Positions 22,677 through 58,922 of a stretch of 64,000 bases of DNA are shown here, in pieces. The notes beneath the pieces were generated by a model. It did not search any database and had not been told where the DNA came from. It worked only from the letters and a program-made list of their open reading frames with translations. Numbering within the stretch: position 1 is the first letter of the stretch; each line of letters starts with the position of its first letter. Origin of the DNA: Candidatus Accumulibacter cognatus (GTDB taxonomy: Bacteria > Pseudomonadota > Gammaproteobacteria > Burkholderiales > Rhodocyclaceae); NCBI GenBank assembly GCA_013414765.1, contig CP058708.1, positions 310,001-374,000 of the forward strand, in the 5' to 3' direction. The position numbers were made by a program, and so were the translations under genes.

Positions 22677-22871
22677 TTAATGTCAAAGTCGCGTCAGCGA
22701 CTCACGACCCCCCCTCCCCACTTGCGGGGGGCGAAGGCGGGGTTTCGTGGAGCACTGCTCCGCGCCGCCGTAGCCGGCCCGCGATGCAGCGCGGGCCGGG
22801 AGGGGTCGGGGGAGAGGGAAACGGTCATGACGTTCATGATCTGGAATGCCTGGAAAAGTCATCACCGTTAG
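22677..22871 (+). repeat. Interspersed repeat, copy A (full length)
   Basis: The left end TTAATGTCAAAGTCGCGTCA contains the AGTCGC-GTCA-GCGACT hairpin. The middle carries a perfect 10-bp stem CCGGCCCGCG/CGCGGGCCGG around ATGCAG (22774-22799). The right end is AACGGTCATGAC followed by CACCGTTAG. The NlpC/P60 gene stop codon (TAA) lies inside its right terminus. Confidence 0.85.
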
Positions 22872-23365
22872 TCGAAGTAGCTGCGCGCAGTCTCGAAGCG
22901 CTGCGCGAAGTAGCGTGCGCCGAGCTGGTCGATGCGCACTCGACCGTTGCTCGACGGCGCGTGGATGAAACGGTCGTCACCGATGTACACTCCGACATGC
23001 GAGAAAGCGGCGTTACGGGTGTTGAAGAAGACCAAGTCGCCGGGGCGCAGGCCCGCACGCTCGACCGGACGACCCCGGCGGGCGATGTCGGCGGCGCTGC
23101 CACTGACCCGAAGCCCCGCCGCGCGTCCGTAGATGTACGACACCATACCGCTGCAGTCCAGACCCGCTTCCGGGTTCTTGCCGCCGAAACGGTAGCCGGT
23201 GTCAAGCAGACTGAGCGCAAAGAGCACCACGTCGTTGCCTTTGGGGCTGCTCGCAGGGGGGCGCTCGGCAGGTTGATGCGCCGGCGCCTGTGGCGCAGGC
23301 GGCTTGCTGGCACAGGCTGCCATCAGCAGAGAGAAGAAGCCGGCGATGAGCAGGTGGACACGCAT
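22868..23365 (-). CDS. NlpC/P60 (C40) peptidase, lipoprotein
   Basis: 165 residues. The lipobox signal LIAGFFSLLMAACAS is lipidated at Cys18 and anchors the protein in the envelope. A Pro/Ala-rich linker is followed by the NlpC/P60 domain: catalytic Cys in AGLDCSGMVSYIYG and catalytic His in FSHVGVYIGDDRFIHAPSS. The family cleaves peptide stems of peptidoglycan. The last codon and stop abut or lie in repeat copy A. Confidence 0.9.
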   Translation of the reverse strand: MRVHLLIAGFFSLLMAACASKPPAPQAPAHQPAERPPASSPKGNDVVLFALSLLDTGYRFGGKNPEAGLDCSGMVSYIYGRAAGLRVSGSAADIARRGRPVERAGLRPGDLVFFNTRNAAFSHVGVYIGDDRFIHAPSSNGRVRIDQLGARYFAQRFETARSYFD

Positions 23366-23413
23366 GCTGCACAGTATAAACTACAGCCCTCAAGATTATT
23401 ACCGGGGAAAGAC

Positions 23414-24865
23414 ATGCACCTGACCGATCCGCGCCTGCTGCGCTCGAACTGCTATGTCGATGGTCGCTGGGAAGCCGCCGACGACGGCCGCACTTTTACC
23501 GTCCGGGACCCGGCAAGTGGCGAAACGCTGGGTGAAGTACCCTGGATGACGGCCACCGAGACTGCGCGCGCGATCGCCGCCGCGGCCGCGGCGCTGCCGG
23601 CCTGGCAGGCGAAGACTGCGAAGCAGCGGGCGACCGTCCTGCGCCACTGGTATGAACTGATCGTCGCTAATGCCGAGGATCTTGCGCAGCTGATGACCGC
23701 CGAGTGCGGCAAACCGATTGCCGAGGCGCGCGGCGAGGTCGCTTACGGCGCCGCCTTCGTCGAATGGTTTGCCGAGGAAGGCAAGCGCGCCTACGGCGAA
23801 TCGATCCCGAGTCCAGCCAATGATCGGCGCTTGCTGACCATTCGCCAGCCGGTCGGGGTCTGTGCGGCGATCACACCCTGGAACTTTCCGCTGGCGATGA
23901 TCACCCGCAAGGTCGCGCCGGCGCTTGCCGCCGGTTGCACGGTGGTGGTCAAACCCGCCGAGCAGACGCCGCTGACGGCCCTGGCGCTGGCGCGTCTGGC
24001 GCATGACGCGGCGCTGCCGGCAGGGGTGTTCAATGTACTGACCGGCGACCCGGCGGCGATCGGCGGCACGCTGACGGCCAGCCCGGTGGTCCGCAAGCTC
24101 TCGTTCACCGGTTCGACCGAGGTTGGTCGACTGTTGATGGCACAATGCGCGCCAACGATCAAGAAACTCTCGCTTGAACTTGGCGGCAATGCGCCGTTCA
24201 TCGTTTTCGACGACGCCGATGTCACCGCTGCGGTCGCAGGAGCGATCGTCGCCAAATATCGCAACACTGGTCAGACCTGCGTCTGCGCCAACCGGCTGCT
24301 GGTCCAGGACGGGATCTACGATCGCTTCGTTGAAGAGCTGAGCAGGCGCGTGCAGTCGCTCAAAGTCGGACCGGGCTGTGAAGAAAGCACTCTGCAGGGA
24401 CCGCTGATCGATGCCGCAGCGCTGGCCAAGGTCGAGGAACATATCGCCGATGCCGTCGCCGGCGGCGCGCGCGTGCTCACCGGTGGTAGCCGGCACGCGC
24501 TCGGTGGCCATTTTTTCACACCAACGGTGCTGGCCGACGTAACGCCAGCAATGCGTATCGCACGCGAAGAGACCTTTGGTCCGGTGGCGCCTGTGTTCAG
24601 GTTCTCGAACGAGGCACAGGCGATCAATATGGCCAACGATACCGAGTTTGGTCTCGCCGCCTATTTCTATACCCGCGACGTGGCGCGCTGCCTGCGCGTG
24701 GGCGAAGCGCTCGAATACGGCATGATCGGCATCAACACCGGTCTGATCTCGAATGAGGTGGCCCCTTTCGGCGGTGTCAAACAGTCCGGCGTCGGCCGCG
24801 AGGGATCAAAGCATGGGCTCGACGAATACCTCGAGATCAAATATCTCTGCTTCAGCACGGTCTGA
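23414..24865 (+). CDS. gabD: NAD(P)-dependent succinate-semialdehyde dehydrogenase
   Basis: Oxidises succinic semialdehyde to succinate. It is 483 residues, the normal aldehyde dehydrogenase length. Motifs: ITPWNFPLAMITRKVAPALA, VVVKPAEQTPLTAL, the nucleotide-site FTGSTEVGRLLM, the catalytic Glu in LSLELGGNAPF, the catalytic Cys in NTGQTCVCANR (Cys pair as in GabD) and REETFGPVAPV. The start is the ATG at 23414 after GGGGAAAG. The same frame stays open for another 491 codons upstream, but that stretch is antisense to the antiporter and NlpC genes. gabD is the usual symbol; other short-chain semialdehydes are possible substrates. Confidence 0.92.
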   Translation: MHLTDPRLLRSNCYVDGRWEAADDGRTFTVRDPASGETLGEVPWMTATETARAIAAAAAALPAWQAKTAKQRATVLRHWYELIVANAEDLAQLMTAECGKPIAEARGEVAYGAAFVEWFAEEGKRAYGESIPSPANDRRLLTIRQPVGVCAAITPWNFPLAMITRKVAPALAAGCTVVVKPAEQTPLTALALARLAHDAALPAGVFNVLTGDPAAIGGTLTASPVVRKLSFTGSTEVGRLLMAQCAPTIKKLSLELGGNAPFIVFDDADVTAAVAGAIVAKYRNTGQTCVCANRLLVQDGIYDRFVEELSRRVQSLKVGPGCEESTLQGPLIDAAALAKVEEHIADAVAGGARVLTGGSRHALGGHFFTPTVLADVTPAMRIAREETFGPVAPVFRFSNEAQAINMANDTEFGLAAYFYTRDVARCLRVGEALEYGMIGINTGLISNEVAPFGGVKQSGVGREGSKHGLDEYLEIKYLCFSTV

Positions 24866-24886
24866 AGCCGTGAACCAGGCGAGAAA

Positions 24887-25069
24887 ATGAAACTCGTCAT
24901 CATCCCGTTGCTGAGCAGCCTGATCCTTGCCACGATCTTTGGGTGGCGGGTGCTGTTCAGGCAGCGGGCTGTGTTCATTGTTGATGGGGTTCGGGACTTC
25001 CCCCCGAACGATGCGGGGAGCCGTTGGGTTTCCCATACTTCGCCATTCTGCCTGGAGCTACGCCGATGA
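24887..25069 (+). CDS. Possible small membrane protein upstream of the SulP permease
   Basis: 60 codons. One N-terminal hydrophobic segment (VIIPLLSSLILATIFGW) is followed by a polar tail. A GGCGAGAAA stretch precedes the ATG, and the stop TGA overlaps the permease start ATG (ATGA at 25066-25069), suggesting translational coupling. I recognise no family, and a chance open frame is possible. Confidence 0.35.
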   Translation: MKLVIIPLLSSLILATIFGWRVLFRQRAVFIVDGVRDFPPNDAGSRWVSHTSPFCLELRR

Positions 25070-26814
25070 ATCCTGCGCATTTTCTCAAGTACCTGCTGTC
25101 TGGTCTGCCACTGCTCTCGACCCTGAAAGAGTATCGACTAGCCTGGCTCAGCAAGGATGCGATCGCCGGGCTTTCGGCCTGTATCGTGTCGATTCCGTCG
25201 GTCATCGCTTATGCCGAACTGGTCCACCTGCCCCCGATTACGGGACTGTACGCGGCACTCGCGGCGGCCATCGGCTATGCCCTGTTTTCCAGTTCACGTC
25301 ACGTCATCGCCGGACCGGATGCCGCCATCGGACTGCTAGCCGGTTCGGCGATCCTGCCGCTGGCGGCAGGCGATCCGGCGCGTATCGTCTCCCTCGCAGC
25401 CGTCCTCGGCATACTTTCAGGGGGGGTATTGCTGCTCGCCGCACGCCTCAAGCTGGGCGTCATTGCCGACCTGTTGTCGCGTCCGGTGTTGATAGGTTAC
25501 CTCAACGGTGCCTCGCTGGTCCTGATCGCCACCCAACTTGGCAAGATGTTCCGTATCAAGACCGAGGGTGAGGAATTCTTCGAGTTGGTCTTTACGATCA
25601 TTGCGCAATTGGCGCAGACGCATCTGCCGACCTTTGTGTTCGGCGTCTTGCTGGTTGGCTTGCTGATCGGACTTGCGCGCTGGTTTCCTCGCGTCCCCGG
25701 CGCACTGGCAGTCTGCGCGGTAGCGATCGCCGTCTCCTTCGCCTTCGACCTCGGCAGCTACGGGGTGGCGCTGGTCGGCAGCGTGCCTTCGGGTATTCCC
25801 AGCCTGACGATCCCAACGTTTCATTGGTCGGATATCTCGGCGCTTGCCCCGGCCGCGGTCGCGATTGCCTTTCTGGCCTTTTCGGACGGGATTCTCCTGG
25901 CACAGACCTTCGCCGAAAAAAATGGCTATGAAGTTCGCCCGAATCGCGAACTGGTGGCACTTGGTTCGGCAAACATCCTGGCCGGCTTGTGGCAAGGTTT
26001 TCCAGTATCCGCCAGCCAGTCCCGGACCTCGATCGTCGATTCGGCTGGTGGCAAGTCGCAGGTGGCACAGTTGCTGGTCGCGGTGGGCTTGCTGCTGTTC
26101 CTGTTCTTTCTGACCGGCTTGATTGCCTTGTTGCCGAAGGTGGCGCTTGGCGCGATTCTGATCGTGACCGCTTTCGGGATGCTGGAAGTGGCGCCGCTCA
26201 CAGGCCTGTACAAGATTGATCGGGTCGAGTTCGGCATTGCCATGGGTGTGACCCTGGCAATCCTGATCGCGGGGGTGGTCCCGGGGATCATTCTCGGTTT
26301 GCTGCTATCGCTGATTTCGGTGCTCGTAGAAGTCTCACGTCCCGACGATGCCGTTCTTCGCCGCCTGGTCAGCGACGGCAAGTTCCACCACTGCATGGGT
26401 GACGAAGAGGCAGAAAGCGTCCCTGGCCTGCTGGTCTATAGGCTTTACGCACCGTTGATCTTTGCCAATGCTCGGCATGTGATGACACGCATCCGGACAC
26501 TGGTCGACGAGGCCGATCATCCGGTCAAGTGGCTGGTGATCGACGCACAGGCGATTCACGACATGGACGTCACCGCTGCTCAACGCTTTGCCGAATTGCA
26601 CCGGGAACTGGCCGAGGACGGAGTTGACATCAAGATTGCCGATGCGCCACGGCCATTCCTAGAAGAACTTGCCAAGGTTGGACTTTCCGAGGAAATCGGC
26701 CGTGGGGATTTCTTCGGGTCGGTAAAAAAAGCGGCCGAGGCCTTCGAACTGACGTATGGTCCCAAGGGGCCGCGAGCCAACAACATGGATCAAACAGCAG
26801 GTCAGCACCGTTGA
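25066..26814 (+). CDS. SulP-family anion permease with C-terminal STAS domain
   Basis: 582 residues, inner membrane. The SulP signature appears early (AGLSACIVSIPSVIAYAELV, PPITGLYAALAAAIGYALF, SRHVIAGPDAA). About 10-12 hydrophobic segments span to about residue 420. The STAS domain (about 440-560) includes KWLVIDAQAIHDMDVTAAQR. SulP proteins carry sulfate, bicarbonate or other anions; which one is not determinable here. The ATG at 25066 gives MNPAHFLKYLL; the upstream in-frame ATG at 25024 would add an unlikely N-terminus. Confidence 0.9.
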   Translation: MNPAHFLKYLLSGLPLLSTLKEYRLAWLSKDAIAGLSACIVSIPSVIAYAELVHLPPITGLYAALAAAIGYALFSSSRHVIAGPDAAIGLLAGSAILPLAAGDPARIVSLAAVLGILSGGVLLLAARLKLGVIADLLSRPVLIGYLNGASLVLIATQLGKMFRIKTEGEEFFELVFTIIAQLAQTHLPTFVFGVLLVGLLIGLARWFPRVPGALAVCAVAIAVSFAFDLGSYGVALVGSVPSGIPSLTIPTFHWSDISALAPAAVAIAFLAFSDGILLAQTFAEKNGYEVRPNRELVALGSANILAGLWQGFPVSASQSRTSIVDSAGGKSQVAQLLVAVGLLLFLFFLTGLIALLPKVALGAILIVTAFGMLEVAPLTGLYKIDRVEFGIAMGVTLAILIAGVVPGIILGLLLSLISVLVEVSRPDDAVLRRLVSDGKFHHCMGDEEAESVPGLLVYRLYAPLIFANARHVMTRIRTLVDEADHPVKWLVIDAQAIHDMDVTAAQRFAELHRELAEDGVDIKIADAPRPFLEELAKVGLSEEIGRGDFFGSVKKAAEAFELTYGPKGPRANNMDQTAGQHR

Positions 26815-27177
26815 GGGTGAGCACCCTCACCGCCTCTCTGACGCTTGCGTCGGCTTTCTCCAGCAGGACATTGCGCAGATATTCGCCGCCATCTGCCCAG
26901 GTCGTGCAGCCATCCATAGAGATGGGCGTGCCACCGCGACCTCCGCCAACGCTCGCTGATCATGACACGCTTAAGCTTGCAGGCGTGGATGGGAAGCCAA
27001 CGCCTTGGGACCTTGCCTGGGCCACGCAGAGACCCAGGTCAGCGGAGTAGCAAAACACATCCTCCCATTGTTTACCGAATTTACCGAAATTTAATAGCCA
27101 GCCCCCCGGTTTTTCAGAATCTTGAACTCTGCTTGCCTATCATTCCTGATGTCAAAGACATCCAAATGGAGGCAAAT
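26815..27177 (+). promoter_or_regulatory. Region upstream of the kdp operon with a tandem 9-bp repeat
   Basis: 363 bp with no supported gene. TTTACCGAA occurs twice in direct tandem (27072-27080 and 27081-27089), about 90 bp before the first kdp reading frame in an AT-rich patch. This is the likely place for KdpE-responsive control, but no KdpE consensus was verified. Confidence 0.4.
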
Positions 27178-27270
27178 ATGGATCTCATTTATCTTGCAGG
27201 GGTTCTTCTGTTCTTCTTCCTGACGGCAGCGTTTGGCGTCGGTTGCGCCCGGCTTGGAGGGACGATATGA
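27178..27270 (+). CDS. Small hydrophobic peptide preceding kdpF
   Basis: 30 codons: [20 protein letters not shown] then [10 protein letters not shown]. It is one membrane helix ending in a short basic tail. AGGC is 6 nt upstream of the ATG, and its TGA overlaps the kdpF ATG (ATGA at 27267-27270). Short peptides starting MD-(L/M)-(I/V)-Y precede kdpF in other proteobacterial kdp operons; the function is not known. Confidence 0.6.
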
Positions 27271-27359
27271 GCATTTCCCAGTTCATCAGCGCCGTCGTCG
27301 CGGTCGCGCTGCTCGTTTACCTGATCGCGGCGCTCCTCCATCCGGAGGACTTCTCATGA
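27267..27359 (+). CDS. kdpF: Potassium-transporting ATPase small subunit KdpF
   Basis: 30 residues with a single helix ([19 protein letters not shown]) and a C-terminal HPEDFS, matching KdpF peptides. KdpF stabilises the KdpFABC complex in the inner membrane. It overlaps the preceding peptide and kdpA by 4 nt on each side. GGCTTGGAGGG upstream supplies the ribosome site. Confidence 0.9.
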
Positions 27360-29143: not shown

Positions 29144-29160
29144 GCGCAAGGAGAAACCTC

Positions 29161-31241: not shown

Positions 31242-31823
31242 ATGAACGATCTCTTGCGTCCCGCCGCCAGCCTGTTCGTACTGCTGTCCGCGCTGACCGG
31301 CATTGCCTACCCGATGGTGCTGACTGGCATCGCCCAAGCACTGTTTCCCGACGCCGCCAGTGGCAGCGTGCTCTTCAGGAACGGTACCCCGGTCGGTTCA
31401 CGTTTGATCGGCCAGAACTTCTCCTCGCCGGAATACTTCTGGGGCCGGCCATCGGCAAGCGCCCCGCAGCCTTACAATGGCACTGCATCGGGTGGCTCGA
31501 ACCAGGGCCCGCTCAATCCGGCGCTGGTCGAAGCAGTCACGACCCACATCTCCGCCCTCAAGGTAGCCGACCCGGACAATCCACAAGCGATTCCGGTCGA
31601 CCTGGTCACCGCCTCGGCCAGCGGCCTCGATCCCCACATCAGTCCTGCCGCCGCCCGCTACCAGGCCAGACGTGTGGCCAGGGCACGCGATCTGTCCATG
31701 GAGCGCCTAACGGCCATCATCGAGGCGCATACCGAAGACCGGCAATGGGGTGTTTTCGGAGAGCCACGCGTCAACGTGCTCAAACTCAACCTCGCACTCG
31801 ATGCGGAACACCAACGGCCATGA
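31242..31823 (+). CDS. kdpC: K+-transporting ATPase subunit KdpC
   Basis: 193 residues. One N-terminal helix ([19 protein letters not shown]) is followed by a periplasmic domain with the family motif [17 protein letters not shown] and [12 protein letters not shown]. KdpC helps assemble the complex and bind ATP with KdpB. The start is the ATG at 31242 after GGAGA, not the in-frame ATG at 31224, which overlaps the end of kdpB. Its stop codon TGA is formed by the terminus of repeat copy B. Confidence 0.94.
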
Positions 31824-31902
31824 CCGTTTCCTTCTCCCATGACCCCTCCCACGCCAGTGGGGAGGGGAAATTCGTGCGTCGCTGACACGGCCCTCACATT
31901 AA
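31819..31902 (-). repeat. Interspersed repeat, copy B (short, inverted)
   Basis: Reading on the minus strand: TTAATGTGAGGGCCGTGTCA, then CCCCTCCCCACTGGCGTGGG, ending GGAAACGGTCATG. The distal half of the terminal hairpin is missing. It fills almost the whole gap between kdpC and kdpD. Confidence 0.75.
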
Positions 31903-35402: not shown

Positions 35403-36452
35403 ATGGGAAAATTGCTGCTGGCACCAATGGAGGGTCTGGTCGACGACATTCTGCGCGACGTTCTGACGCGTGCCGGCACTTACGATCTGGCGGTGAGCGA
35501 GTTCATCCGCGTGTCGGGCAGCCTGTTGCCGATTCGGGCTTTCCGCCGCATCTGCCCCGAACTTTCGCATGCCAGCCGCACTCGAGCGGGTACCCCAGTG
35601 GTCGTACAGCTGCTGGGGAGCGACCCGGCCTGTCTGGCCGAGAACGCGGCGCAACTGGTCGAGCTGTCACCGGCAGGAATTGATCTCAACTTTGGTTGCC
35701 CGGCGCCAACGGTCAACCGTCACGGCGGCGGCGCTTCCTTGCTCGCCAATCCTGATCAGATGTTCCGCATCGCTGCCGCTGTCAGGCGTGCGATCCCGCC
35801 GGCCATCCCATTCAGCGCCAAGATGCGGCTCGGAATCAGCGACACGGCGAGGACGCTGGATTGCGCACGGGCGCTGGCGGCGGGCGGCATTGTATCGCTG
35901 GTGGTGCATGCACGCACAAAAACCGAGGCTTATCGACCGCCAGCACACTGGGAATGGGTGGCGCGCATCAGCGAGGTCGTACAGCTGCCGGTAGTTGCCA
36001 ACGGTGAGGTCTGGACAACCGATGACCATTGCCGCTGCTGTGCGGTGAGTACCCGCCAGGATGTGATGATCGGACGTGGTGCGGTCGCCGATCCCTTTCT
36101 CGCCGAGCGCATTCGTGCGCTGTCGGTAGGTATGGTGATCGCCACCGATCGTTCGCACGACTGGTGCCGACTGCTGCCGCTGCTGGCTTCATTCTGGCAG
36201 CAGGTCTGTGCCAAAGTCTCGGCACGCCATGCGCCAGGTCGCCTCAAGCTCTGGCTGGGGGCGCTGCGGCGGAATTTCGTCCAGGCCGAGACGCTGTTCA
36301 TTGCGGTTCGGTCGCTACGCAGCGTTGCTGAAGTCACGCGCGAGCTGCTGCGACATGGCGTGCCGGTGCTGCCAGCGATCGATTATTGTGAAAGTCGCGT
36401 CAGCGACTCACGACCCCTCCCTCTCCACTTGCGGGAGAGGGAACGGGGGTGA
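35403..36452 (+). CDS. dusC: tRNA-dihydrouridine synthase (DusC-like)
   Basis: FMN enzyme that reduces uridines in the tRNA D-loop (U16 for DusC). It is 349 residues. The TIM-barrel start is [20 protein letters not shown]; the catalytic Cys segment is [20 protein letters not shown]; also [26 protein letters not shown] and [12 protein letters not shown]. The start is the ATG at 35403 (a TTG two codons upstream is possible). The last ~23 codons (from about 36383) lie in repeat copy C, so the natural C-terminus has been replaced or extended by repeat-derived sequence rich in Arg. Confidence 0.9.
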
Positions 36453-36505
36453 GAAACGGTCATGGCGTTCATCATCCGCTGTGTCTCGATTTGCGATGAC
36501 CGTTA
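36383..36505 (+). repeat. Interspersed repeat, copy C (short form)
   Basis: TTATTGTGAAAGTCGCGTCA, then GCGACTCACGACCCCTCC, CTCTCCACTTGCGGGAGAGG and AACGGTCATGGC, ending GATGACCGTTAG. The variable central stem-loop is absent. Its left 70 bp are translated as the end of the dihydrouridine synthase. Confidence 0.85.
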
Positions 36506-36515
36506 GGGCCACTCG

Positions 36516-37354: not shown

Positions 37355-37535
37355 CTCGTTTCAAGAGCTTCCACTTAAATCCAATGGATATGGCTTCTCT
37401 GGAAGTGGTGGAACTTTTTCGTTGCAAGTTGGCGATAAATATCCCGATATACTGAAATAGGTAACAAACGACTTTAACTGTCTGGTGTAATGGGCTGTAG
37501 AATTCGAGCATTGCTTTCTGTAGGGACAGGCTGCG

Positions 37536-38057
37536 ATGCTGAGACTGACCTTTACCCCGGCGGAGGCGGACGCCTTAGAGCACGAGCGATTTCACCATCC
37601 GCATCCCCACGTGCGACGCAAGATGGAAGCGCTGTGGCTGAAAAGCCAGGGGCTTGCGCATCAAGATATCGCGCGGCTCGCGGGCGTGAGCGGCAAGACG
37701 CTTCGCACCTACCTCCAGCAGTATGTGGAGGGCGGCGTCGCCGGGGTGAAGGAACTGCATTTCCGTCGGCCGCAGAGCGAACTGGTGGCGCATCAGGAGA
37801 CGATCGGGGCTTATTTTCTCACCCATCCGCCGGCTTCGATCCATGAGGCCGTGGATGCGATCAGAAAGCTCACGGGTTTGAGCCGCTCGCCGACTCAGGT
37901 GCGGCTTTTCCTGCGAGAGAAGTGCGGGATGAGACGCCTGAAGACCGGCACCCTGCCGGCCAAGGCGGATCCCGAGGTCCAGGAAGCCTTTAAAAAAAAG
38001 AACTTGAACCGCGTTTGGCAGAAGCCCAAGCGGGCCAACGTGCCGTGTTCTTCGTAG
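37536..38057 (+). CDS. IS630 transposase, first frame (HTH domain)
   Basis: 173 codons. The N-terminal helix-turn-helix region is GLAHQDIARLAGVSGKTLRT, followed by a second HTH-like segment (LSRSPTQVRLFLREKCGMRR). The frame passes through EAFKKK at a run of eight A (37992-37999) and then enters a nonsense tail. The A-AAA-AAG heptamer at 37994-38000 allows a -1 shift into the second frame, giving ...EAFKKKELEPRLAEAQAG and a full-length protein of about 345 residues. Confidence 0.85.
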   Translation: MLRLTFTPAEADALEHERFHHPHPHVRRKMEALWLKSQGLAHQDIARLAGVSGKTLRTYLQQYVEGGVAGVKELHFRRPQSELVAHQETIGAYFLTHPPASIHEAVDAIRKLTGLSRSPTQVRLFLREKCGMRRLKTGTLPAKADPEVQEAFKKKNLNRVWQKPKRANVPCSS

Positions 38058-38572
38058 ACGCGGCACACTTTGTCTTGGGCGCCTTCCTGTCGGTGGTGTG
38101 GTGCCTTGCTCGGGTCTGGATCAAGGCGCCCTCGGGCCGGCAGCGCTTCAACGTACTGGGTGCGCTCGACGCCGTCACCAAAGAGGTCGTCACCGTCGTC
38201 AATTCCACCTACATCAATTCGCTCAGCGTCTGTGCTTTGCTGGAGAAACTGGTTACCCTACGGCCCACGCTGCCTATGACGGTCGTCCTGGACAACGCCC
38301 GCTATCAGCGTTGTGCGTTGGTGAAAACCTGCGCCGAGAAACTGAAGATCGAGTTGCTCTTTTTACCCACCTACTCCCCAAATTTGAACCTCATCGAGCG
38401 TTTGTGGAAGTTCGTCAAAAAGCAGTGCCTCTACGCCAAGTACTACCCCGACTTCCATTCCTTCACGACGGCCATCGAGCGCTGCTTGCAAGATACCCAC
38501 ACCATCCACGCCAAGGCACTACAGTCCCTATTGACCCTGAACTTCCAAACCTTCAAGAAGATTCAATCGTGA
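38015..38572 (+). CDS. IS630 transposase, second frame (DDE catalytic domain)
   Basis: 185 codons from the first possible start; the frame is open from 37994. The catalytic triad is complete: Asp in VFFVDAAHFVLG, Asp in MTVVLDNARYQ, and Glu in YSPNLNLIERLWKFVKK. The product is probably made as a fusion with the upstream frame by -1 frameshifting. Confidence 0.87.
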   Translation: MAEAQAGQRAVFFVDAAHFVLGAFLSVVWCLARVWIKAPSGRQRFNVLGALDAVTKEVVTVVNSTYINSLSVCALLEKLVTLRPTLPMTVVLDNARYQRCALVKTCAEKLKIELLFLPTYSPNLNLIERLWKFVKKQCLYAKYYPDFHSFTTAIERCLQDTHTIHAKALQSLLTLNFQTFKKIQS

Positions 38573-38728
38573 CCGCGCACGGTATAACTATCCCTTAGTT
38601 CGGTGTACGTACGCGTATCGGTCAACGAAAAACGGGCTATCCCCCGCGACAGCATGGATGGCCCGTGTGCTTGCCGGAATGATCAGGAACGGTCGGCGTT
38701 CCTCGGCAGAACATCCGGCTCCCGAAGC

Positions 38729-44100: not shown

Positions 44101-44343
44101 CAGGTCTCCTCAATCCTTTGAAAGGAGCGATTCTTCCGCATACCAACGCTTGAGATTTTGATCCAGCGCAAGTTTCGCCGCGATCCCGGGGGAAACACCC
44201 CAGCCGGCTTGGCGATGCCTGAAACCTTTGTCGTGCGTGCGTAGGTCGGGAAGTGGGAGTTCATCGGACTCAAGGGAATATCACTGCAGGAGGGAAATTG
44301 GCGACAAATTCGAGAACTCACCAAGCATCCTCTATGCCCATCG

Positions 44344-44442
44344 GGCGCATTCCGGCGTGCACGCCGGAATGCGCCGGACCAAGGAGGGAAAACGGTCATG
44401 ACTTGCATGATCCGGGGTGTTTGATGATGTCATGACCGTTAG
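44344..44442 (+). repeat. Interspersed repeat, copy D (right half only)
   Basis: Begins with a perfect 32-bp palindrome (44344-44375; half-arm GGCGCATTCCGGCGTG) in place of the central stem-loop. It continues with GGAGGGAAAACGGTCATGAC and ends at GTCATGACCGTTAG (12-bp terminal stem). The TTAATGTG left end is missing. Confidence 0.8.
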
Positions 44443-44486: not shown

Positions 44487-44900
<414 letters not shown>

Positions 44901-45010: not shown

Positions 45011-45218
45011 CTAACGGTCATGACTTTTTCAGCCCCCCCGATCATGAAAGTCATGATCGTTTCCCTCCCTCTTGCCGGGCGGATTCAGGCTGGCACACCT
45101 GAATATCGCTTTCTGGGTACGGCGCATGCGGCGTGGAGCAGTGCTTTGCGAAACCCCGCCTTCGCCCACGCGAGGGAGAGAGGAGATTCGTGAGTCGCTG
45201 ACGCGGCTTTCACATTAA
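45011..45218 (-). repeat. Interspersed repeat, copy E (full length, inverted)
   Basis: Minus-strand reading: TTAATGTGAAAGCCGCGTCA, GCGACTCACGAATCTCCTCT, GGCGAAGGCGGGGTTTCG, a central stem ATTCAGG/CCTGAAT, then AACGATCATGAC and finally GTCATGACCGTTAG. The mshN stop codon TAA lies inside the TTAATGTG end. Confidence 0.85.
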
Positions 45219-51718: not shown

Positions 51719-51730
51719 TCGTTTCGTTGA

Positions 51731-52721: not shown

Positions 52722-53792
52722 TCAGACGCTGAGGTCCACCTGCTGTAGACTGCCGACCCCGCCATTTTCCTGCAGGAAGACGCCACTGCTGCGGATCTGC
52801 CCAAGGGTTTCGTTGCTGCCGTTACGTAGATCGAAAGGTGTCGCGACGCGGGCCAGGCTGAGTGCGCCGACATCGGCCTCCTTGAGGCTTAGCACCTTGC
52901 CACCACCACCTGCATCGGGCGTCCACACCCCGAGCTGGGCATAGGCCGCGTCGTTTTCGTCGATCCAGCCGTTACCATCTCCGTCAAGTGCCGCGAGGTC
53001 AGCAAAGCCATCGCCGCTCCTGGTCCCGAAAAGCTCGCTACCGTTGTTGATCTGCCCGTCGTGGTTGCGATCGAGGGTCAGGAAACCGCTACCGGAGGCG
53101 AGACGACTGATACTCTCGGCGGTCCCGTTAGCATCGAGATCGAACTTGAAAAGCTGGTCGCTGAGTTGGGCGGCATTGCCCGCAAAATTGATCACCAGGG
53201 GATCTTTCTTCTGGCGCGTAGCGTCGCCGAGGAGCACTCTGACATCGCTCTCTTCGTGGTAGCTGCGCGACATCTGAAGCTCCAGGTCAAAGCGGATCTC
53301 CTGGCCGTCGGCGGTCTTGATCACCCCGCTGGCAGCGAACGAGGTTTGCTCGAATTCGCTGTGCGACGCGTGGTAGTCGTATTCGACGCCGTAACCTGCT
53401 GGCCTTTGCGCTACAGCAACGTGTTCACCCTGGGCAACGCTGGCAACTGGCGCCGCCTCGGCCGGCACCTGCGCCGCAGCCGGTGCATGCAACTCGGCGA
53501 CATCGAAGACGCGGACGTCTTCCCCGGTCAGCATGCGAACGAGGGCTCGCATCAGCAGCATGCGTGGATCACTCTCGGTCTCGTCGGTACTACCTTCCAT
53601 TGCATCCGCCTGTGCTGCCGCCCTGCCGGCATCGGAAAGAGTGACCTGATCTGCGGGAGCACGCGCATCGCCGCGACCCTCGAAGTCCGGCCGCTGAGCA
53701 CCGACCCACACGCGCATCGATTCGCGGACTTCGGTTTTTTGTGCTGCGACATGCGACGAGAGCAGTTGCATCTCGGAACTGGTGATTTTCAT
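52722..53792 (-). CDS. Hypothetical protein with EF-hand-like calcium motifs
   Basis: 356 residues with no signal peptide. The N-terminal ~130 residues are low complexity, Ala-rich. Residues about 140-215 form a beta-rich segment (IKTADGQEIRFDLELQMSRS). Residues about 235-310 contain Asp-rich loops LTLDRNHDGQINNGSELFG and AALDGDGNGWIDENDAAYAQ. These resemble the D-x-N-x-D-G-x-I calcium loops seen in RTX-type and large secreted proteins, where 'ElFG...dG' is a recurring motif. It may be a type I-secreted or calcium-dependent protein; the function is unknown. Confidence 0.75.
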   Translation of the reverse strand: MKITSSEMQLLSSHVAAQKTEVRESMRVWVGAQRPDFEGRGDARAPADQVTLSDAGRAAAQADAMEGSTDETESDPRMLLMRALVRMLTGEDVRVFDVAELHAPAAAQVPAEAAPVASVAQGEHVAVAQRPAGYGVEYDYHASHSEFEQTSFAASGVIKTADGQEIRFDLELQMSRSYHEESDVRVLLGDATRQKKDPLVINFAGNAAQLSDQLFKFDLDANGTAESISRLASGSGFLTLDRNHDGQINNGSELFGTRSGDGFADLAALDGDGNGWIDENDAAYAQLGVWTPDAGGGGKVLSLKEADVGALSLARVATPFDLRNGSNETLGQIRSSGVFLQENGGVGSLQQVDLSV

Positions 53793-53849
53793 GGTGGCTG
53801 CCTGAGTGGATGGAGGTAAACGCTACAACGGCAGACGGGAGGTTATTCT

Positions 53850-53884
53850 TTAATGTGAAAATCGTGTCAGCGACTCACCAATCT
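53850..53884 (+). repeat. Interspersed repeat, copy F, left fragment
   Basis: TTAATGTGAAAATCGTGTCA then GCGACTCACCAATCT. It is cut by the ISKra4-type element; the rest of the copy resumes at 58628 (the 9-bp CACCAATCT is duplicated). Confidence 0.85.
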
Positions 53885-53899
53885 GGGTGTGATTCAAAG

Positions 53900-55671
53900 G
53901 TATGCGTTTAGCCCCCACCGATTGCGAGCCCCCCAATCAGGCGGCGGCCGGTAGCGGGGGTGCTGAGTTGCCTTTGCGCCGCTCGGTGATCACCTTCGCC
54001 AGGTAGGGCCAGGGCAGGATGTGGCGACGGCGGCAGGTGTCGATGACACTGGCCAGCAGAGCAAAGGCACGGGTGCCCTGCCCGGTACGAGTCCCCTGGC
54101 TGAGGAGCCGGGCAATCACCCAGTGCCGCAAGGCACGTTCCGCTTCGTTATGGGTCAGCGGCAGATGGGGATGGACGACGACGATCCAGAAGGCTTCCCA
54201 GTCATTGAGAAGTTCGCGCGCCAGTGCGCGGGTCTTTTCATGGACCGAATCCTGGTGCTTTTCGCAAAGCTCACGGAAGGACTCCAAGCGCTCGTGGAAG
54301 CGGGGAGTGAGATCCACCGGCGGACCTTCCCGCGCTTCATAAATCGCGATCATCAGCTCGTTGAGGAGGTCGTGGGTGGCCTGTCCAAAGGCCCGCGCCT
54401 CGGTGCTCAGGCTTTCTTTGAGTCCCTCGGCCTTGCGCAACAGGTGCGCCCAACAGCGCAGCCGCTTCTGGAACCGGCGATAGACTGGGTAGCCATCGCT
54501 CATCAGCCAGCCGACAAACCCTTCGCCCAGGACGTTCTCCAGGATCTCCTTGCTGCGGTAGCCAATAAAGTACAGGCAGATCGTCGGCGTGACGAGCACC
54601 CACAGCCACAGTAACTGGCCCCATTCCTTCCACGGCGTTTCATCGGCATGGGTCAACGCTTCCTGCTGCAGTTCTTCGACCAACTGCTCTTCAATCGGCT
54701 CGACCGCCCGACCGGCTTCGTGGATACACTGGTTAATCGTGCTGGTGGAGAGCGCGACGCCCAGCCAGTCTCGCAGAAATTCCTGCGTCCGCCGACGCGA
54801 CAGGTGCATGCGGTGGGAGAAACACACCAGCAGGCTGACCAGCATCGGCCCGACCAGGTGCCATTCGCTCAGGCCGACGCTCCACCCGGGCTCGGCTTGG
54901 CAGCGGCCGGGCTCGCTGCGATTGACATGCCCACATTGGCCACAGAAAATTTCCCCGTAGAGATGTTTGTCATGGCACATCCGCAAGCCGGGGAGCTCCG
55001 CATTCAGGTCGGTCTCGAGATCCAGGACGTACCGCCCGCCGTGCGCGACAAACCCGGCCGCATCCAAAGCCTCACCGCAGCGCACGCAGGATTCCGGAGC
55101 GTGGATCACGGTGTCGTTGATCGGCAAGGTCACCGGCCGGCTATGGCCCGCGGCCCCGGGCTGTCGCCCCGCTTTCTTGGTCGGGGCTGCCGCCGCGCCG
55201 CCCGGCAGGTCTGCCTCCGCCGGGGTGGCAAGGCCCTTCGGCTCGGTATTCTTCACCGCGCTTGCCGCACGATCCTCGTCTGCATCGGGATCCTCTGGAT
55301 TATCTGCGTTCCCAGAGGCTTCCGAGTCTGCCTCCCGGGAGACTGCTCCGTGCCACGGGGGGTCACTGCGCGGCGGCCGAGAACTGGTCTGCGAGTTCGC
55401 TTTGAGCCGTTCCCGCGCCTCTTTCAAATCCCACAGCAACTTCACCAGCAAGCTATCTTTCTGCTTCGCTGCTAACTCCTTCAGCTTCTGCTCATCCAGT
55501 TGCTGAAGATCAAAGTCGCTCAGGTACACTTATTGGCTCCACGGGATACGATCACACCCTCACTGCCGCTATAAGATACCCAGACCGTCCTGCGCTGGCA
55601 AGCGCTGTGCTCAATTGCTCAACTCCGCGCCAACCTGCTGGGTAGGTGTCGTAGGGGGGCTAAACGCTTAC
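53900..55671 (-). mobile_element. IS66-family insertion sequence (transposase only)
   Basis: Ends GTATGCGTTTAGCCCCC (from 53900) and, inverted, GTAAGCGTTTAGCCCCCC (up to 55671). The 8-bp target duplication is exact: ATTCAAAG at 53892-53899 and 55672-55679. Only one gene is present (no TnpA/TnpB), as in the single-gene IS66 subgroup. Confidence 0.92.
53937..55529 (-). CDS. IS66-family transposase
   Basis: 530 residues, intact. The N-terminal leucine-rich coiled coil is QLDEQKLKELAAKQKDSLLV. The zinc-finger region has ESCVRCGEALDAAG and IFCGQCGHVNRSEP. The DDE domain has the first Asp in ALTHADETPWKEWGQLLWLW, the second in VGWLMSDGYPVYRRF and Glu in LPLTHNEAERALRHWVI. Confidence 0.93.
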   Translation of the reverse strand: MYLSDFDLQQLDEQKLKELAAKQKDSLLVKLLWDLKEARERLKANSQTSSRPPRSDPPWHGAVSREADSEASGNADNPEDPDADEDRAASAVKNTEPKGLATPAEADLPGGAAAAPTKKAGRQPGAAGHSRPVTLPINDTVIHAPESCVRCGEALDAAGFVAHGGRYVLDLETDLNAELPGLRMCHDKHLYGEIFCGQCGHVNRSEPGRCQAEPGWSVGLSEWHLVGPMLVSLLVCFSHRMHLSRRRTQEFLRDWLGVALSTSTINQCIHEAGRAVEPIEEQLVEELQQEALTHADETPWKEWGQLLWLWVLVTPTICLYFIGYRSKEILENVLGEGFVGWLMSDGYPVYRRFQKRLRCWAHLLRKAEGLKESLSTEARAFGQATHDLLNELMIAIYEAREGPPVDLTPRFHERLESFRELCEKHQDSVHEKTRALARELLNDWEAFWIVVVHPHLPLTHNEAERALRHWVIARLLSQGTRTGQGTRAFALLASVIDTCRRRHILPWPYLAKVITERRKGNSAPPLPAAA

Positions 55672-55728
55672 ATTCAAAGTGATGCAAGCCCCATAATTTC
55701 AGCATTTGCCACCAGAGGGAACAGCCAT

Positions 55729-57283
55729 GCTAGCAGCCTGTCGGACTTGGAGCCCGGGAAACCGACAAATTTTACTTTTCGGCATGAAAAAGGCCGGAAT
55801 TTGTCGATTTTCCGGCCTTTTTGAGGTTTTTTCCTCGTTTTTCTCTACTGCGGGCGCAACTTGGCCATGCGCTTCAAATTCCACGCCAGGCAGACCAGCG
55901 TCCATTCCCCGGTGACCTTCTGCCAACCCCGCAAGGAAAACTGGCGAAAGCCCATGACCGACTTGATGATGCCGAAGACCGGCTCGACGGTCTGCTTGCG
56001 CAACGCATAGAGCGCTCGCCCCGCTCTGGTCTTCAAACGATGCGACATGGCCTGCACGGGTGTCGCATGCTCCGGTAGCGCGGCCGGTTCGCTATGCCGC
56101 TCCCGCCAGTCAGGATGGTGCTCGTCGCGCGCCACCGCGATCAAGGGGACGATGCCGGCCGCCTCGCACGCCTTGATGTTCTTCTCGCTGTAGAAGCCCG
56201 TGTCGGCGATCATCCCGTGCACGGAACCCAGCCCATCGGCCTGCGCCTGGAGCGTCGCCAGCATCGGCTCGACCTGCTCCTTGTCGTTGGGGGCTTGCGT
56301 CACGCCGACCGCCACCACCAGCAGGGTCGCGGGATCAACCGCCGCCTGGGCGTTGTACGCCTGCTCGAAGCCGCCACCGGCCACCGGCATGATGCGCGAT
56401 TCTTCGTCGGTCAGATTGATCTGGTCACTGTCCCGTACGCCGGGCTCGGGGGCTTTGGGCACGCTGCCCCCCCACTTCCTGCCGGTCTCTTCTTCTTTCG
56501 CCTTGCGCCGCGCCCTCTTCTCGTCGTACTGCGCCTTCTCTCGCTGATCGCGCTCCTCGGCCCGCGCCGCAATCTTCGCCTTGGCCGCCGCCATCGCCAC
56601 CAGCCGATCTTCGCGGCGCTTGATTTCTTCCGGCAGGCTGACGCCGTCCGGAACCTCCGCCTGATCCGCCTGTTCGGCCAGCGCGAACAGTTCCTGCACC
56701 TCCGCCTTGAGTTGCGCTTCCAGCTTTTCGATGTGGCCGTGCGAAAGCGCACGGTGGCGGGAGGCGTTGGCCTGAATCTTCGTGCCGTCAAGACAGACAT
56801 TGCCCAGTTTGAGCAGCTTCATCTCCCGGGCCATCTCCAGAACCTGCACGAACAAGTCGCTCAGTTCCTCCAGAAAACGCCGGCGGAACGTCGCCAGGCT
56901 GTCGTGATCGGGATGGCTGCCGGCGGCAATGTAGCGAAAGGCGACCGAATCGTAGGTCGCCTGCTCCAGCCTGCGGCTGGAGAAAATACCCGTCGCGTAG
57001 CCATAGACCAGAATGGCCAGCAGCGTCGCCGGATGGTACGCCTTCGATCCCCGTCCAGCGTACTGCCGCGTCAGCTTCGACAAATCAAGCGAGTCGATCA
57101 CCTCCACAATGAATCGCGCCAAATGATCCTCGTTCAACCAATCGTCGAGTGACGGCGGCAGCAGGTAGTCGGTCTTGCGATCGGTGACGATGAAATGGGA
57201 CATGCCGGACCTCCGTTCCTGGAACGGCTATGATTGTAGCATATTCAGCGGGCGGCAAGGGTAAAGTCCGACAGGCTGCTAGC
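55729..57283 (-). mobile_element. IS1182-type insertion sequence
   Basis: Perfect 20-bp terminal inverted repeats GCTAGCAGCCTGTCGGACTT at 55729-55748 and, inverted, at 57264-57283. It is inserted in the 5' part of the ISKra4 transposase gene. No clear target duplication. A hairpin with TTTTT near 55795-55840 lies downstream of the transposase gene. Confidence 0.9.
55845..57203 (-). CDS. IS1182/IS5-type transposase
   Basis: 452 residues, intact. The N-terminal DUF772-type domain includes YLLPPSLDDWLNEDHLARFI and AYHPATLLAILVYGYATGIF. The first catalytic Asp is in VCLDGTKIQANAS, a charged coiled insertion spans about 165-245, the second Asp is in GMIADTGFYSEKN, and Glu is in KQTVEPVFGIIKSVMGFRQF. 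Confidence 0.92.
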   Translation of the reverse strand: MSHFIVTDRKTDYLLPPSLDDWLNEDHLARFIVEVIDSLDLSKLTRQYAGRGSKAYHPATLLAILVYGYATGIFSSRRLEQATYDSVAFRYIAAGSHPDHDSLATFRRRFLEELSDLFVQVLEMAREMKLLKLGNVCLDGTKIQANASRHRALSHGHIEKLEAQLKAEVQELFALAEQADQAEVPDGVSLPEEIKRREDRLVAMAAAKAKIAARAEERDQREKAQYDEKRARRKAKEEETGRKWGGSVPKAPEPGVRDSDQINLTDEESRIMPVAGGGFEQAYNAQAAVDPATLLVVAVGVTQAPNDKEQVEPMLATLQAQADGLGSVHGMIADTGFYSEKNIKACEAAGIVPLIAVARDEHHPDWRERHSEPAALPEHATPVQAMSHRLKTRAGRALYALRKQTVEPVFGIIKSVMGFRQFSLRGWQKVTGEWTLVCLAWNLKRMAKLRPQ

Positions 57284-57299
57284 CACTGACCGCGACCAG

Positions 57300-57578
57300 A
57301 TGTTGTTGGAGCGTCTGAATCGTCATCCTACGTTGCGTGCCCGTATGGAAAGCTTGCTGGGCGTGGTGGAAGACGCTGCCGGAGACTTGGAGAAGGCGGA
57401 TGCAGCGGAACGTCGAGTGATCGAAGAACTCCGCCAGATGGGCAACGAAGCTCTGGCCGCCTGGGCGGAACGTGGAGTGGAGAAGAGTGTGGCAGTGGCA
57501 CGAGTGGAGCCTGATTTACGTTTGGCGGGTAAAAAAAACTCTATTGGCACACGACCTTCGGTAAAGTCGATGTGGTAG
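57300..57578 (+). CDS. ISKra4 transposase, N-terminal frame
   Basis: 92 codons (MLLERLNRHPTLRARMESLL onward, with AERRVIEELRQMGNEALAAW typical of ISKra4 proteins). Reading back across the IS1182 insertion, the frame continues a few codons to a possible TTG start at about 55709, so the insertion removed only the very start. The frame meets eight A at 57531-57538. The heptamer A-AAA-AAC (57533-57539) would shift ribosomes -1 into the second frame. Confidence 0.8.
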   Translation: MLLERLNRHPTLRARMESLLGVVEDAAGDLEKADAAERRVIEELRQMGNEALAAWAERGVEKSVAVARVEPDLRLAGKKNSIGTRPSVKSMW

Positions 57579-58579
57579 AGCCTCTGTGGCGGAATGGCAC
57601 ACGGATCGAGCGGCGTTTCAGCACCCGAGCGGGGATCAGTTGCCGGGGCAGTTCGCAGCCGTTGCAACGGGTGATGAGTGATTTTGGGGCAGATGCGGCT
57701 TTTGGGCGGGTGCCGGAAAAGCTGAAGGAACACTATGGGATCGAGATGCCGGTAAGCACGATTCAACGGATCACCGAACATCACGCGCCAATCATTTGCG
57801 AGCAAGAGGCCAAGCGGGAGATTGTGGCCGGGACGATGGCCGGAGTCACCTTTATCGGCGAGATGGATGGTTCGATGGTCCCGGTGGTGGAAATTTCTTC
57901 GGATGCCGAAGACAAACGCAAAGGGAAGCGTTTGGCCTGGAAAGAAGTTCGCCTGAGTCTCGTGCATCCGAAAGGCAGCGTCACCCCGATATTTGGTGGA
58001 AATTTTGCCGGTGGGGTCGAGGAAAGCGGGCGACAGTGGTGGCGTTGTGCGGCCAAAGCGGGGTTTGGCCCGGGGAGTTACCTGCATGCGGTGGGCGATG
58101 GCGCGTCGTGGATTGCCACGCAGGAGGAGATCCAATTCGGTGCGCAAGGAGCCTATTTGGTGGATTTCTTCCATCTCTGCGAGTACCTCGGCGAAGCGTC
58201 CAAGGTCTGCGCCGCCAATGATCCCCGAGCCTGGTTGGAAGAACAAAAAAGTCGGCTCAAGGCGAACCAATCCGGTGCTGTGCTGGAAGCGTTGGCACCG
58301 TTCGTAGAGACCAATAGCGACGACCCCGCCACCGCCTGTGACCGCTATATTCGTAACCGCCGGGATCAACTGGACTACCAAGGCGCGATCAAGCAGGGGC
58401 TACCCATTGGGTCGGGGGAAATCGAGAGCGCCCACCGCTACGTTATCCAGGAGCGGATCAAGCTTCCCGGTGCTTGGTGGTCACCAGATCATATCGAGAC
58501 CATGTTAGCCCTACGGCTTAACCGGGCCAACCGGGAATGGGACGCCTATTGGCGGGGTGTCGAAAAAGAAGCCGCATAA
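57572..58579 (+). CDS. ISKra4 transposase, catalytic frame
   Basis: 335 codons from the first start; the frame is open from 57533. DDE-type core: FIGEMDGSMVPVVE with the first Asp, LHAVGDGASWI with the second, and GLPIGSGEIESAHRYVIQER with the Glu. It would be joined to the upstream frame by -1 frameshifting as ...GKKLYWHTTFGKVDVVEP. Confidence 0.85.
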   Translation: MVEPLWRNGTRIERRFSTRAGISCRGSSQPLQRVMSDFGADAAFGRVPEKLKEHYGIEMPVSTIQRITEHHAPIICEQEAKREIVAGTMAGVTFIGEMDGSMVPVVEISSDAEDKRKGKRLAWKEVRLSLVHPKGSVTPIFGGNFAGGVEESGRQWWRCAAKAGFGPGSYLHAVGDGASWIATQEEIQFGAQGAYLVDFFHLCEYLGEASKVCAANDPRAWLEEQKSRLKANQSGAVLEALAPFVETNSDDPATACDRYIRNRRDQLDYQGAIKQGLPIGSGEIESAHRYVIQERIKLPGAWWSPDHIETMLALRLNRANREWDAYWRGVEKEAA

Positions 58580-58627
58580 AGGGGTCATCTCAACGACGCA
58601 TCACTTTGAATCACACCCCACCAATCT

Positions 58628-58922
58628 CCTCTCTCCCTCGCTGGGGGGAAGACGCATAGCCTTATACACAACTCATTCAGCATGAGCAAAAAAGCGATCT
58701 AAATCGTTGATTTTTAGATGAAACATGCTCAAACGAGCAGGTTTTTATGCAATTCGGTAACTTATTGTTTCATATCGATATTTATGATGTCAGATGAGTT
58801 GTGTATAAGGCTATGGGGAAGACGGGGTTTCCGAGCATCGCTCCCGTCGCTGCAGCCGGCCCGCGATGCAGGGCAAGCCGTGGAAGGGATCGGGGAAAGG
58901 GCAAAGTCATGATGACCGTTAC
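58628..58922 (+). repeat. Interspersed repeat, copy F, right fragment (split by a MITE)
   Basis: CCTCTCTCCCTCGCTGGGG, then after the MITE GGGGTTTCCGAGCATCGCTC, the decayed central stem CCGGCCCGCG/GGCAAGCCGTGG, and the right end GTCATGATGACCGTTA. Removing the ISKra4 element and the MITE restores one full-length copy that aligns with copy A. Confidence 0.8.
58655..58815. mobile_element. MITE, 161 bp
   Basis: Perfect 22-bp terminal inverted repeats starting CATAGCCTTATACACAACTC (58655-58676 and, inverted, 58794-58815). The target duplication GGGAAGACG is exact (58646-58654 and 58816-58824). The interior is AT-rich with no coding capacity. Confidence 0.92.

What the first reader, a model, noticed from the sequence alone, without database searches (positions are those of the whole stretch)
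22677..58922. A six-copy interspersed repeat family with a hairpin at each end and a variable middle
Copies at 22677 (A), 31819 (B, inverted), 36383 (C), 44344 (D, right half), 45011 (E, inverted) and 53850+58628 (F, split) share a left end TTAATGTGAAAGTCGCGTCA with an AGTCGC-GTCA-GCGACT hairpin and a right end AACGGTCATGAC...GTCATGACCGTT. Lengths vary from about 85 to 210 bp, and all lie between genes. I find no coding sequence in them. Their density (six in 64 kb) implies hundreds per genome, so they are either an active non-autonomous element or a structured regulatory/REP-like family.
Basis: seen in the sequence. Interest (0 to 1): 0.78.

Follow-up and report, generated by a model that had tools for sequence, protein, structure and literature searches.

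The report
Hairpin-ended mobile DNA element family
A bacterium of the Accumulibacter group carries well over a hundred copies of a small gene-free piece of mobile DNA that inserts next to a four-letter word, quite often exactly at the stop signal of a gene, and that probably moves by borrowing an enzyme from other mobile elements.

Summary
The repeat family is real. The own genome (5.17 Mb) has 143 covariance-model matches (138 after merging; a lower bound). The unit is about 123 bp: TTAATGTGAA, hairpin, GC-rich middle with optional modules, long hairpin, GACCG. Its right flank is TTAG or a close variant. Empty orthologous sites in congeners show that it is mobile: 6 of 9 elements queried have an unbroken site in G026 holding a single tetranucleotide. 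There are no terminal inverted repeats and no target duplication beyond a possible 2-3 bp. Head-to-tail tandems join as GACCG|TTAATG. The hairpins are kept by compensatory changes within the genus and in other genera of the order. I found no autonomous copy, and Y1/RAYT counts do not track copy number. The layout resembles IS91-type rolling-circle elements: the left word resembles the right-flank word, and three of four IS91-like groups of the genus share a 10-nt leader ending in AA before a GC hairpin. Best reading: a non-autonomous ssDNA/HUH-type element, most likely IS91-like, mobilised in trans. Mobility is shown; the enzyme is inferred. In 16 of 87 two-ended copies the right junction is the stop codon of an antisense gene.

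The parts
22677..22867 (+). Copy A, full length with one middle module (191 bp); right flank TTAG at 22868-22871, which by my reading is the TAA stop of a minus-strand gene
   Evidence: boundary rule
31815..31902 (-). Copy B, short, right hairpin internally deleted; flank CCAA (rc TTGG) at 31811-31814
   Evidence: absent in 4 of 4 congeners read, which are 70-81% identical in the flanks
36383..36502 (+). Copy C, canonical length; right flank TTAG at 36503-36506; present in G026, near-clean empty site in G019; by my reading inserted at the stop codon of the upstream plus-strand gene
44340..44438 (+). Copy D, right part only (middle module plus right hairpin; left limit approximate); right flank TTAG 44439-44442; present in G026, absent in G019
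45015..45218 (-). Copy E, full length with middle module; flank CTAA at 45011-45014; absent in G026 (which keeps CATTAA), only a left-hairpin remnant in G019
53850..53884 (+). Copy F, left end and left hairpin, up to and including the 9-bp direct repeat CACCAATCT (53876-53884)
53885..58618 (.). Insertion-sequence stack interrupting copy F (ends GGGTGTGATTCAAAG ... CTTTGAATCACACCC; ORFs of 530, 452 and 335 aa); not part of the family
58619..58918 (+). Copy F, right part: second direct repeat 58619-58627, module and shortened right hairpin ending CCG at 58918; itself interrupted by a 162-bp AT-rich insert at 58654-58815; read by eye, not found by the model

Best explanation
It is a non-autonomous mobile element of about 123 bp (shorter deleted and longer module-bearing forms exist) with two different hairpin ends. 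Shown: the unit is TTAATG...GACCG; it sits immediately 5' of a TTAG-like tetranucleotide (3' of CTAA on the other strand); it leaves no target duplication longer than a possible 2-3 bp; it forms head-to-tail tandems with an exact junction; its hairpins are kept by compensatory change. Inferred: it moves as single-stranded or circular DNA through an HUH transposase acting in trans, most likely an IS91-like (Y2, rolling-circle) enzyme. The long right hairpin abutting the target would be the origin end, and the left end (TTAA + 6 nt ending AA + GC hairpin) the terminator end. Insertion next to CTAA often preserves a gene's stop codon, which helps explain why such copies are tolerated.
For: Ends: 109 left and 111 right ends give sharp boundaries with almost no information in the flanks beyond TTAATG and beyond TTRG. 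Empty sites: nine G000 elements were queried by joined flanks; in G026 six align without a break, each with one 4-nt word at the site (TTAG, TTAG, TTAG, TTCG, GTAG, TTCG), identical to the filled right flank in 4 and one base off in 2; the other three gave no usable match across the site. Further empty or nearly empty sites. At 5107069 the target TTCG reappears only at the filled right flank while the left end is TTAA, so the left word belongs to the element. Tandems: 17 neighbouring left ends under 300 bp apart in the loci from L231 on, 10 at exactly 123 bp; the 15 listed (110-135 bp) all join as CCGTTAATG (loci may overlap, so a site can be counted twice). Covariation: 19 of 28 pairs changed on both sides, shuffle mean 5.6; with nine sequences of other genera 97.3% of cells paired, 13 of 28 pairs changed on both sides, shuffle mean 5.7. 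IS91-like layout: the left layout (4 nt + 4 nt + AA + GC hairpin) is shared by 3 of 4 IS91-like groups of the genus and this element, against 10 of 9,279 background sites; their copies show GTTG at the left and GTT at the right junction. IS91-family traits (no proper terminal repeats, left tetranucleotide like the target, action in trans) from passages of PMC3189936.
Against: No autonomous copy with these ends was found. Y2 number correlates with element number (rho 0.48, p 0.0097, n 28), but the partial correlation falls to 0.33 when genome size is allowed for, and G005, G016 and G018 have 16-24 elements and no Y2 hit (completeness 99, 90 and 83%). The right hairpin is flush with the cut, whereas about 11 nt separate hairpin and end in the best-resolved IS91-like group. 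The IS91-like comparison was made after the fact; I chose where their ends begin (GTTG, GTTC), looked at no empty sites for them, and one of seven copies of the 439-aa group lacks GTT on the right. Solo left ends, which one-ended IS91 transposition would not make, are frequent (18 read, 2-3 of them internally deleted copies), as are right ends without a recognisable left end (21 of 138 held matches by regex, some with a diverged left end). Four copies of one left-end subfamily (TTACTA...GAGC) all have TTTG on the right, so the right word may partly belong to, or be chosen by, the subfamily. A 2-3 bp duplication cannot be excluded (left/right triplet identity 35 of 87, shuffles 30.2, p 0.056).
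Confidence: 0.5

Rival explanations
1. IS200/IS605-type or TnpA-REP (RAYT) element: a Y1 HUH enzyme moves the strand that reads CTAA|CGG...ATTAA, inserting 3' of CTAA by peel-and-paste.
For: No inverted repeats, no duplication, insertion 3' of a tetranucleotide and hairpins at both ends, the family traits in PMC7290912 (passages). Four Y1 hits in the own genome.
Against: In IS200/IS605 the guide lies 5' of each palindrome (PMC8266576 passages); here the palindrome starts at the cut, leaving no room on that strand. Y1 counts do not follow copy number (rho 0.19, p 0.34; G011, 88% complete, has 38 elements and no Y1). No orientation bias with replication (67 of 138), although PMC7290912 reports none for its IS605 set either (10 of 22 on the leading strand). 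The REP beside one RAYT looks like a different GTAG-type REP (my reading).
Confidence: 0.22
2. DDE-transposase MITE with a very short (2-3 bp, TT or TTA) target duplication, ERIC-like.
For: TT or TTA stands at both ends of most copies; left/right triplet identity is slightly above shuffles (35 of 87 against 30.2, p 0.056).
Against: No terminal inverted repeats; left word TTAA and right word TTAG differ systematically; the TTCG target at 5107069 is seen only on the right.
Confidence: 0.15
3. Site-specific recombinase substrate, attC-like: the right hairpin (AAC...G|TT) is exchanged by a tyrosine recombinase acting on folded single strands.
For: G|TTAG junction, folded end, exact tandem junctions, no duplication.
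Against: Hardly any G preference before the left junction (41 of 109); wide dispersal rather than one array; no covariation between the internal AA and the target TT. Recombinase genes were not searched. attC features are from memory.
Confidence: 0.08
4. Chiefly a structured regulatory RNA/REP-like family kept for mRNA stabilisation or termination, spread by recombination.
For: Strong folding of one canonical copy (RNA z -5.9, DNA z -6.4), covariation, position right after stop codons, orientation bias among co-directional flanks 34 against 16 (p 0.015; genes within 1 kb).
Against: Turnover at orthologous sites with near-exact insertion boundaries requires mobility; 3 of 28 genomes of the genus have no match. 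A secondary host role is not excluded.
Confidence: 0.05

Closest known systems
IS91/IS801/ISCR family and its miniature derivatives
   Same: No proper terminal repeats; left-end tetranucleotide resembles the target; stem-loop near the left end; transposase can act in trans (PMC3189936 passages); no target duplication (PMC5876387 passages); GTT at the right junction in IS91-type elements of this genus
   Different: Word is TTAG/CTAA instead of GTT or GAAC; right hairpin flush with the end; no coding copy known; far higher copy number
IS200/IS605 PATEs
   Same: Hairpin ends, tetranucleotide target, no duplication
   Different: No tnpA relative with these ends found; palindrome starts at the cut; no lagging-strand bias
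GTAG- and CGTC-tagged REPs, BIMEs, REPINs
   Same: More than 100 mostly intergenic palindromic copies per genome
   Different: Three different hairpins in a fixed order, sharp boundaries and target word; the ends are neither two inverted REPs nor GTAG-tagged; no flanked RAYT found
ERIC and other small bacterial MITEs
   Same: About 125 bp, mostly intergenic, module insertions, strong copy-number differences between relatives (ERIC size and target from memory; copy-number passage of PMC10969869)
   Different: No terminal inverted repeats; tetranucleotide target kept once

Membership tests
IS91-type (Y2, rolling circle) non-autonomous element | No terminal inverted repeats and no target duplication | tested here: met
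   (a 2-3 bp TT/TTA overlap cannot be resolved)
IS91-type (Y2, rolling circle) non-autonomous element | Left-end tetranucleotide resembles the target word at the right flank | tested here: met
   TTAA against TTAG; IS91-type elements in the genus: GTTG against GTT, cut point assumed
IS91-type (Y2, rolling circle) non-autonomous element | Ends shared with a Y2-encoding element | tested here: not met
   not found in the Y2 loci examined (4, 21, two read closely), a part of all Y2 hits; so it is not filed as a member
IS91-type (Y2, rolling circle) non-autonomous element | Mobilised by a Y2 transposase | not testable with these tools
   only correlation: rho 0.48, partial 0.33
IS200/IS605 / PATE | Insertion 3' of a tetra- or pentanucleotide without duplication | tested here: met
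   CTAA on the complementary strand
IS200/IS605 / PATE | Guide sequence 5' of each palindrome, inside the element | tested here: not met
   palindrome begins at the cut on the CTAA strand (definition)
IS200/IS605 / PATE | Lagging-strand orientation bias | tested here: inconclusive
   67 of 138; bias is not universal in the family
REP/RAYT system | RAYT gene flanked by two inverted copies of the repeat | tested here: not met
   (33 Y1 loci); definition from PMC2817692 passages
REP/RAYT system | GTAG or CGTC tag at one end | tested here: not met
   ends are TTAATG and GACCG; CGTC occurs only inside the left hairpin
MITE (DDE) | Terminal inverted repeats | tested here: not met
   only a weak YTAAYG likeness of the two ends
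Rfam family | Match to a curated covariance model | tested here: not met
   (only two tRNAs in the window; one sub-threshold hit elsewhere in L440)

The most novel reading that the evidence does not exclude
A previously undescribed, order-wide class of tiny rolling-circle elements with the anatomy of IS91 but the size and number of REPs. It is driven in trans by Y2 enzymes, recognises TTAG/CTAA and thereby lands on stop codons, so it spreads through operons without breaking genes.
Probability: 0.3. Interest if true: 0.75.

Novelty: new variant of a known kind. Interest (0 to 1): 0.55.

Why it matters
Many high-copy bacterial repeats have no known mover. Here the exact unit, its target word, empty sites, tandems and species with many or no copies are all at hand, so the mover can be sought by a direct test. 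If the mover is an IS91-like enzyme, the family would link the IS91/ISCR group to REP-scale repeats, and would help explain how a family can fill operon gaps by using stop codons as landing sites. It is also a possible marker for typing Accumulibacter lineages.

Tried and rejected
Autonomous copy: looked for left and right ends on one strand 0.35-8 kb apart in the loci from L231 on; 14 pairs were listed and 11 inspected: ordinary genes, masked sequence or unrelated ends. 18 left ends of G000 without a model match were read 4-5 kb inward: no enclosed gene; L442 and L447 are internally deleted copies, L455 keeps a right-arm fragment, and the right end in L456 belongs to the next copy. The list behind these 18 was hand-picked from the first 100 or so of 118 places shown and, so it is not complete. 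Y2 neighbourhoods: 22 further loci (21 Y2, 1 Y1) gave three full copies in two loci. In L472 two copies in the same orientation flank a Y2 gene about 1.2 and 1.1 kb away, and the first is followed by 12 nt of a further left end (TTAATGTGAAAC); the Y2 gene is followed by a right end of its own type before the second copy, so I read it as chance neighbourhood, not an autonomous copy. Phage/plasmid vector: no match for the G000 element in plasmids or phages, 0 in viral contigs for two patterns, and only middle-module matches of one distant member in two plasmid records; two other distant members gave none. Guide pairing between internal AA and target: no covariation. Replication-strand bias: none. 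Literature: searches for Accumulibacter with REP, MITE or repeat terms and for four sequence words (top 30 of 288 seen as a list) gave no description of this family; in PMC12306157 Accumulibacter is not named, and PMC9012009 only names it beside general remarks on mobile elements. CGTC-tagged REPs were rejected on tag and structure (PMC3733652 passages). One search was a mistaken use of the search for related loci on non-coding DNA and found nothing.
Full report
OBSERVATION. The six copies are in the window at essentially the places given, far above chance. In the whole genome (G000, one contig of 5,169,514 bases) the left end with up to 3 mismatches occurs 118 times and the reversed-pattern control 0 times. 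A covariance model built from 19 copies gives 143 matches at E up to 0.1 with only 150 candidates scored, or 138 after merging. Eighteen further left ends, hand-picked from the listed places, have no model match within 400 bp (less one mistyped coordinate; read).

ANATOMY. The canonical unit is TTAATGTGAA - AGTCGC-GTCA-GCGACT - CACGAATC - CCCCTCCCC...GGGAGGGG - TCGGGGGAGAGGGAAACGGTCATGAC...GTCATGACCG. Of 87 two-ended copies in G000, 66 are 100-135 bp, 14 are 171-215 bp (an extra hairpin module in the middle), 1 is 147 bp and 6 are under 100 bp; two-module copies of about 265 bp also exist. Boundaries are sharp at both ends. Right-flank words in the 87 copies: TTAG 42, TTGG 12, TTAA 5, TCAG 5, TTTG 5, TTCG 3, others 15. 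Four copies with left end TTACTA...GAGC all have TTTG on the right (1088579, 2999786, 4449397, 4533848), so ends may travel together or the subfamily may choose its own word.

MOBILITY. G026 (about 94% identical in shared stretches) and G019 (about 90%) were compared. Nine G000 elements were queried by joined flanks in both. In G026 six align without a break, each with one four-base word at the site: 198494, 1417606 and 530473 have TTAG; 5107069 has TTCG; 3205307 has GTAG; 3040900 has TTCG. The filled right flank is identical in four and one base different in two. The other three gave no match across the site in G026. In G019, 1625305 and 5107069 look filled (the two flank matches lie 128 bp apart), 1417606 is empty with TTAG, and the remaining alignments are less clean (at 530473 the site even reads like a right-end remnant). 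Window copy C is present in G026, near-cleanly absent in G019 and absent in the 12 other congener loci where both flanks aligned (these flanks are 68-79% identical); D is present in G026 and absent in G019; E is absent in G026 and a left-hairpin remnant in G019; B is absent in 4 of 4. One search adds absences in G026 for 1367754, 2885161 and 3672805, a converse case (a G026 copy absent in G000), a right-end remnant at 98717, and one site where G026 holds a different partial copy. Several of these empty sites differ from the expected string by a few bases, as expected at this divergence or after decay.

TANDEMS. In the loci from L231 on, 17 neighbouring left ends lie under 300 bp apart, 10 at exactly 123 bp; the 15 listed all join as CCG|TTAATG (some loci may overlap). 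Eight exact pairs are 0.84-0.98 identical (mean 0.91), against a mean of 0.85 for 300 random pairs drawn across genomes. Most are thus not fresh duplications, but the control does not correct for pairs sharing a genome.

STRUCTURE. The CTAA-side strand of one canonical copy folds far better than its shuffles as DNA (z -6.4) and as RNA (z -5.9). On 68 sequences 93.8% of cells pair and 19 of 28 pairs have changes on both sides (shuffle mean 5.6). On 19 sequences that include nine from other genera 97.3% pair and 13 of 28 have changes on both sides (shuffle mean 5.7). These alignments were fitted to the model, which favours it; the slid controls reach at most 54% and 46% paired. The left stem changes in concert between genera (AGTCGC/GCGACT, CGTCGC/GCGACG, CATCGC/GCGATG).

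DISTRIBUTION. In 300 genomes of the order 33 match, in 19 of 135 genera, at 11 candidates per genome and with strict filters; the order is Burkholderiales from memory of GTDB. Nine distant copies read keep the left leader in recognisable form and mostly CCG|TTAG-like right ends (L433 departs on the right, L437 on both).

GENE CONTEXT (crude home-made gene finder). Of 87 copies 2 are inside genes. With genes required within 1 kb on both sides, flanks in element orientation are (-,-) 34, (+,+) 16, (-,+) 16, (+,-) 11, and 8 copies drop out; co-directional flanks are biased 34 to 16 (p 0.015; the first count, 37 to 17, let some flanks reach beyond the held stretches). In 16 of 87 copies the right junction is exactly the stop codon of the antisense gene, against 109 of 3,812 non-coding TYRG sites; for TTAG alone it is 10 of 42 against 15 of 188 (p 0.006). 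Selection against breaking genes may account for part of this.

MECHANISM. No copy encloses a transposase gene in what I could examine. Y1 (PF01797) counts do not track copy number (rho 0.19). IS91-like elements of the same genus show GTTG at the left, and GTT at the right junction in 12 of 13 copies of the 439- and 403-aa groups. I set their starts by eye and tested no empty sites for them. Three of 4 groups share with this element a left leader of ten bases ending in AA followed by a GC hairpin (10 of 9,279 background sites, which include this family's own copies). The layout therefore points to an IS91-like rolling-circle process; the enzyme is not shown. IS200/IS605-type movement is the main rival: it shares the lack of repeats and duplication, but the cut lies at the palindrome itself, where that family keeps a guide sequence. 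There is no bias with replication (67 of 138; replichores estimated from about 19% of the genome).

VERDICT. A real, mobile, non-autonomous element family, undescribed as far as searches can tell. Mobility, unit and target are shown; the HUH/IS91-like mover is inferred; any host function is open.

Noticed in passing
window 53885-58618: Insertion-sequence stack with ends GGGTGTGATTCAAAG and 9-bp direct repeats CACCAATCT; it holds ORFs of 530, 452 and 335 aa that look like transposases of IS66, IS1182 and ISKra4 type (names from memory).
   Followed up: partly
window 58654-58815: 162-bp AT-rich insert with about 22-bp inverted ends (CATAGCCTTATACACAACTCAT) and 8-bp direct repeats GGGAAGAC, a different MITE-like element; its end word was found nowhere else in the 0.96 Mb of G000 searched.
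   Followed up: partly
window 58919-58940: TTACCGTGAAAGCCCGC right after copy F looks like the left end of a second, truncated copy in tandem.
   Followed up: no
L472 386-4140 (G014:C27): A Y2 transposase gene lies between two full copies of the family in the same orientation, with 12 nt of a further left end at one copy's junction; probably chance, but the best place to look for a link.
   Followed up: partly
L049 about 1660-2180, minus strand: A RAYT-like gene that looks frameshifted, lying in a caspase-like gene and preceded by what looks like a GTAG-type REP unrelated to this family.
   Followed up: no
window 44500-44870: Stretch between copies D and E that looks like a minus-strand gene rich in Gly-Pro-X repeats, collagen-like (my reading).
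   Followed up: no
L461-L466 (G010): An IS91-type element of about 2.43 kb in six fetched copies 98-100% identical (one truncated on the left), with ends GTTGGACGAAGC...CTTATTC|GTT.
   Followed up: partly
window about 37446-38586 (query 7447-8587): A 1.14-kb sequence with nine further listed copies at 99-100% identity in G000, likely an active insertion sequence.
   Followed up: no
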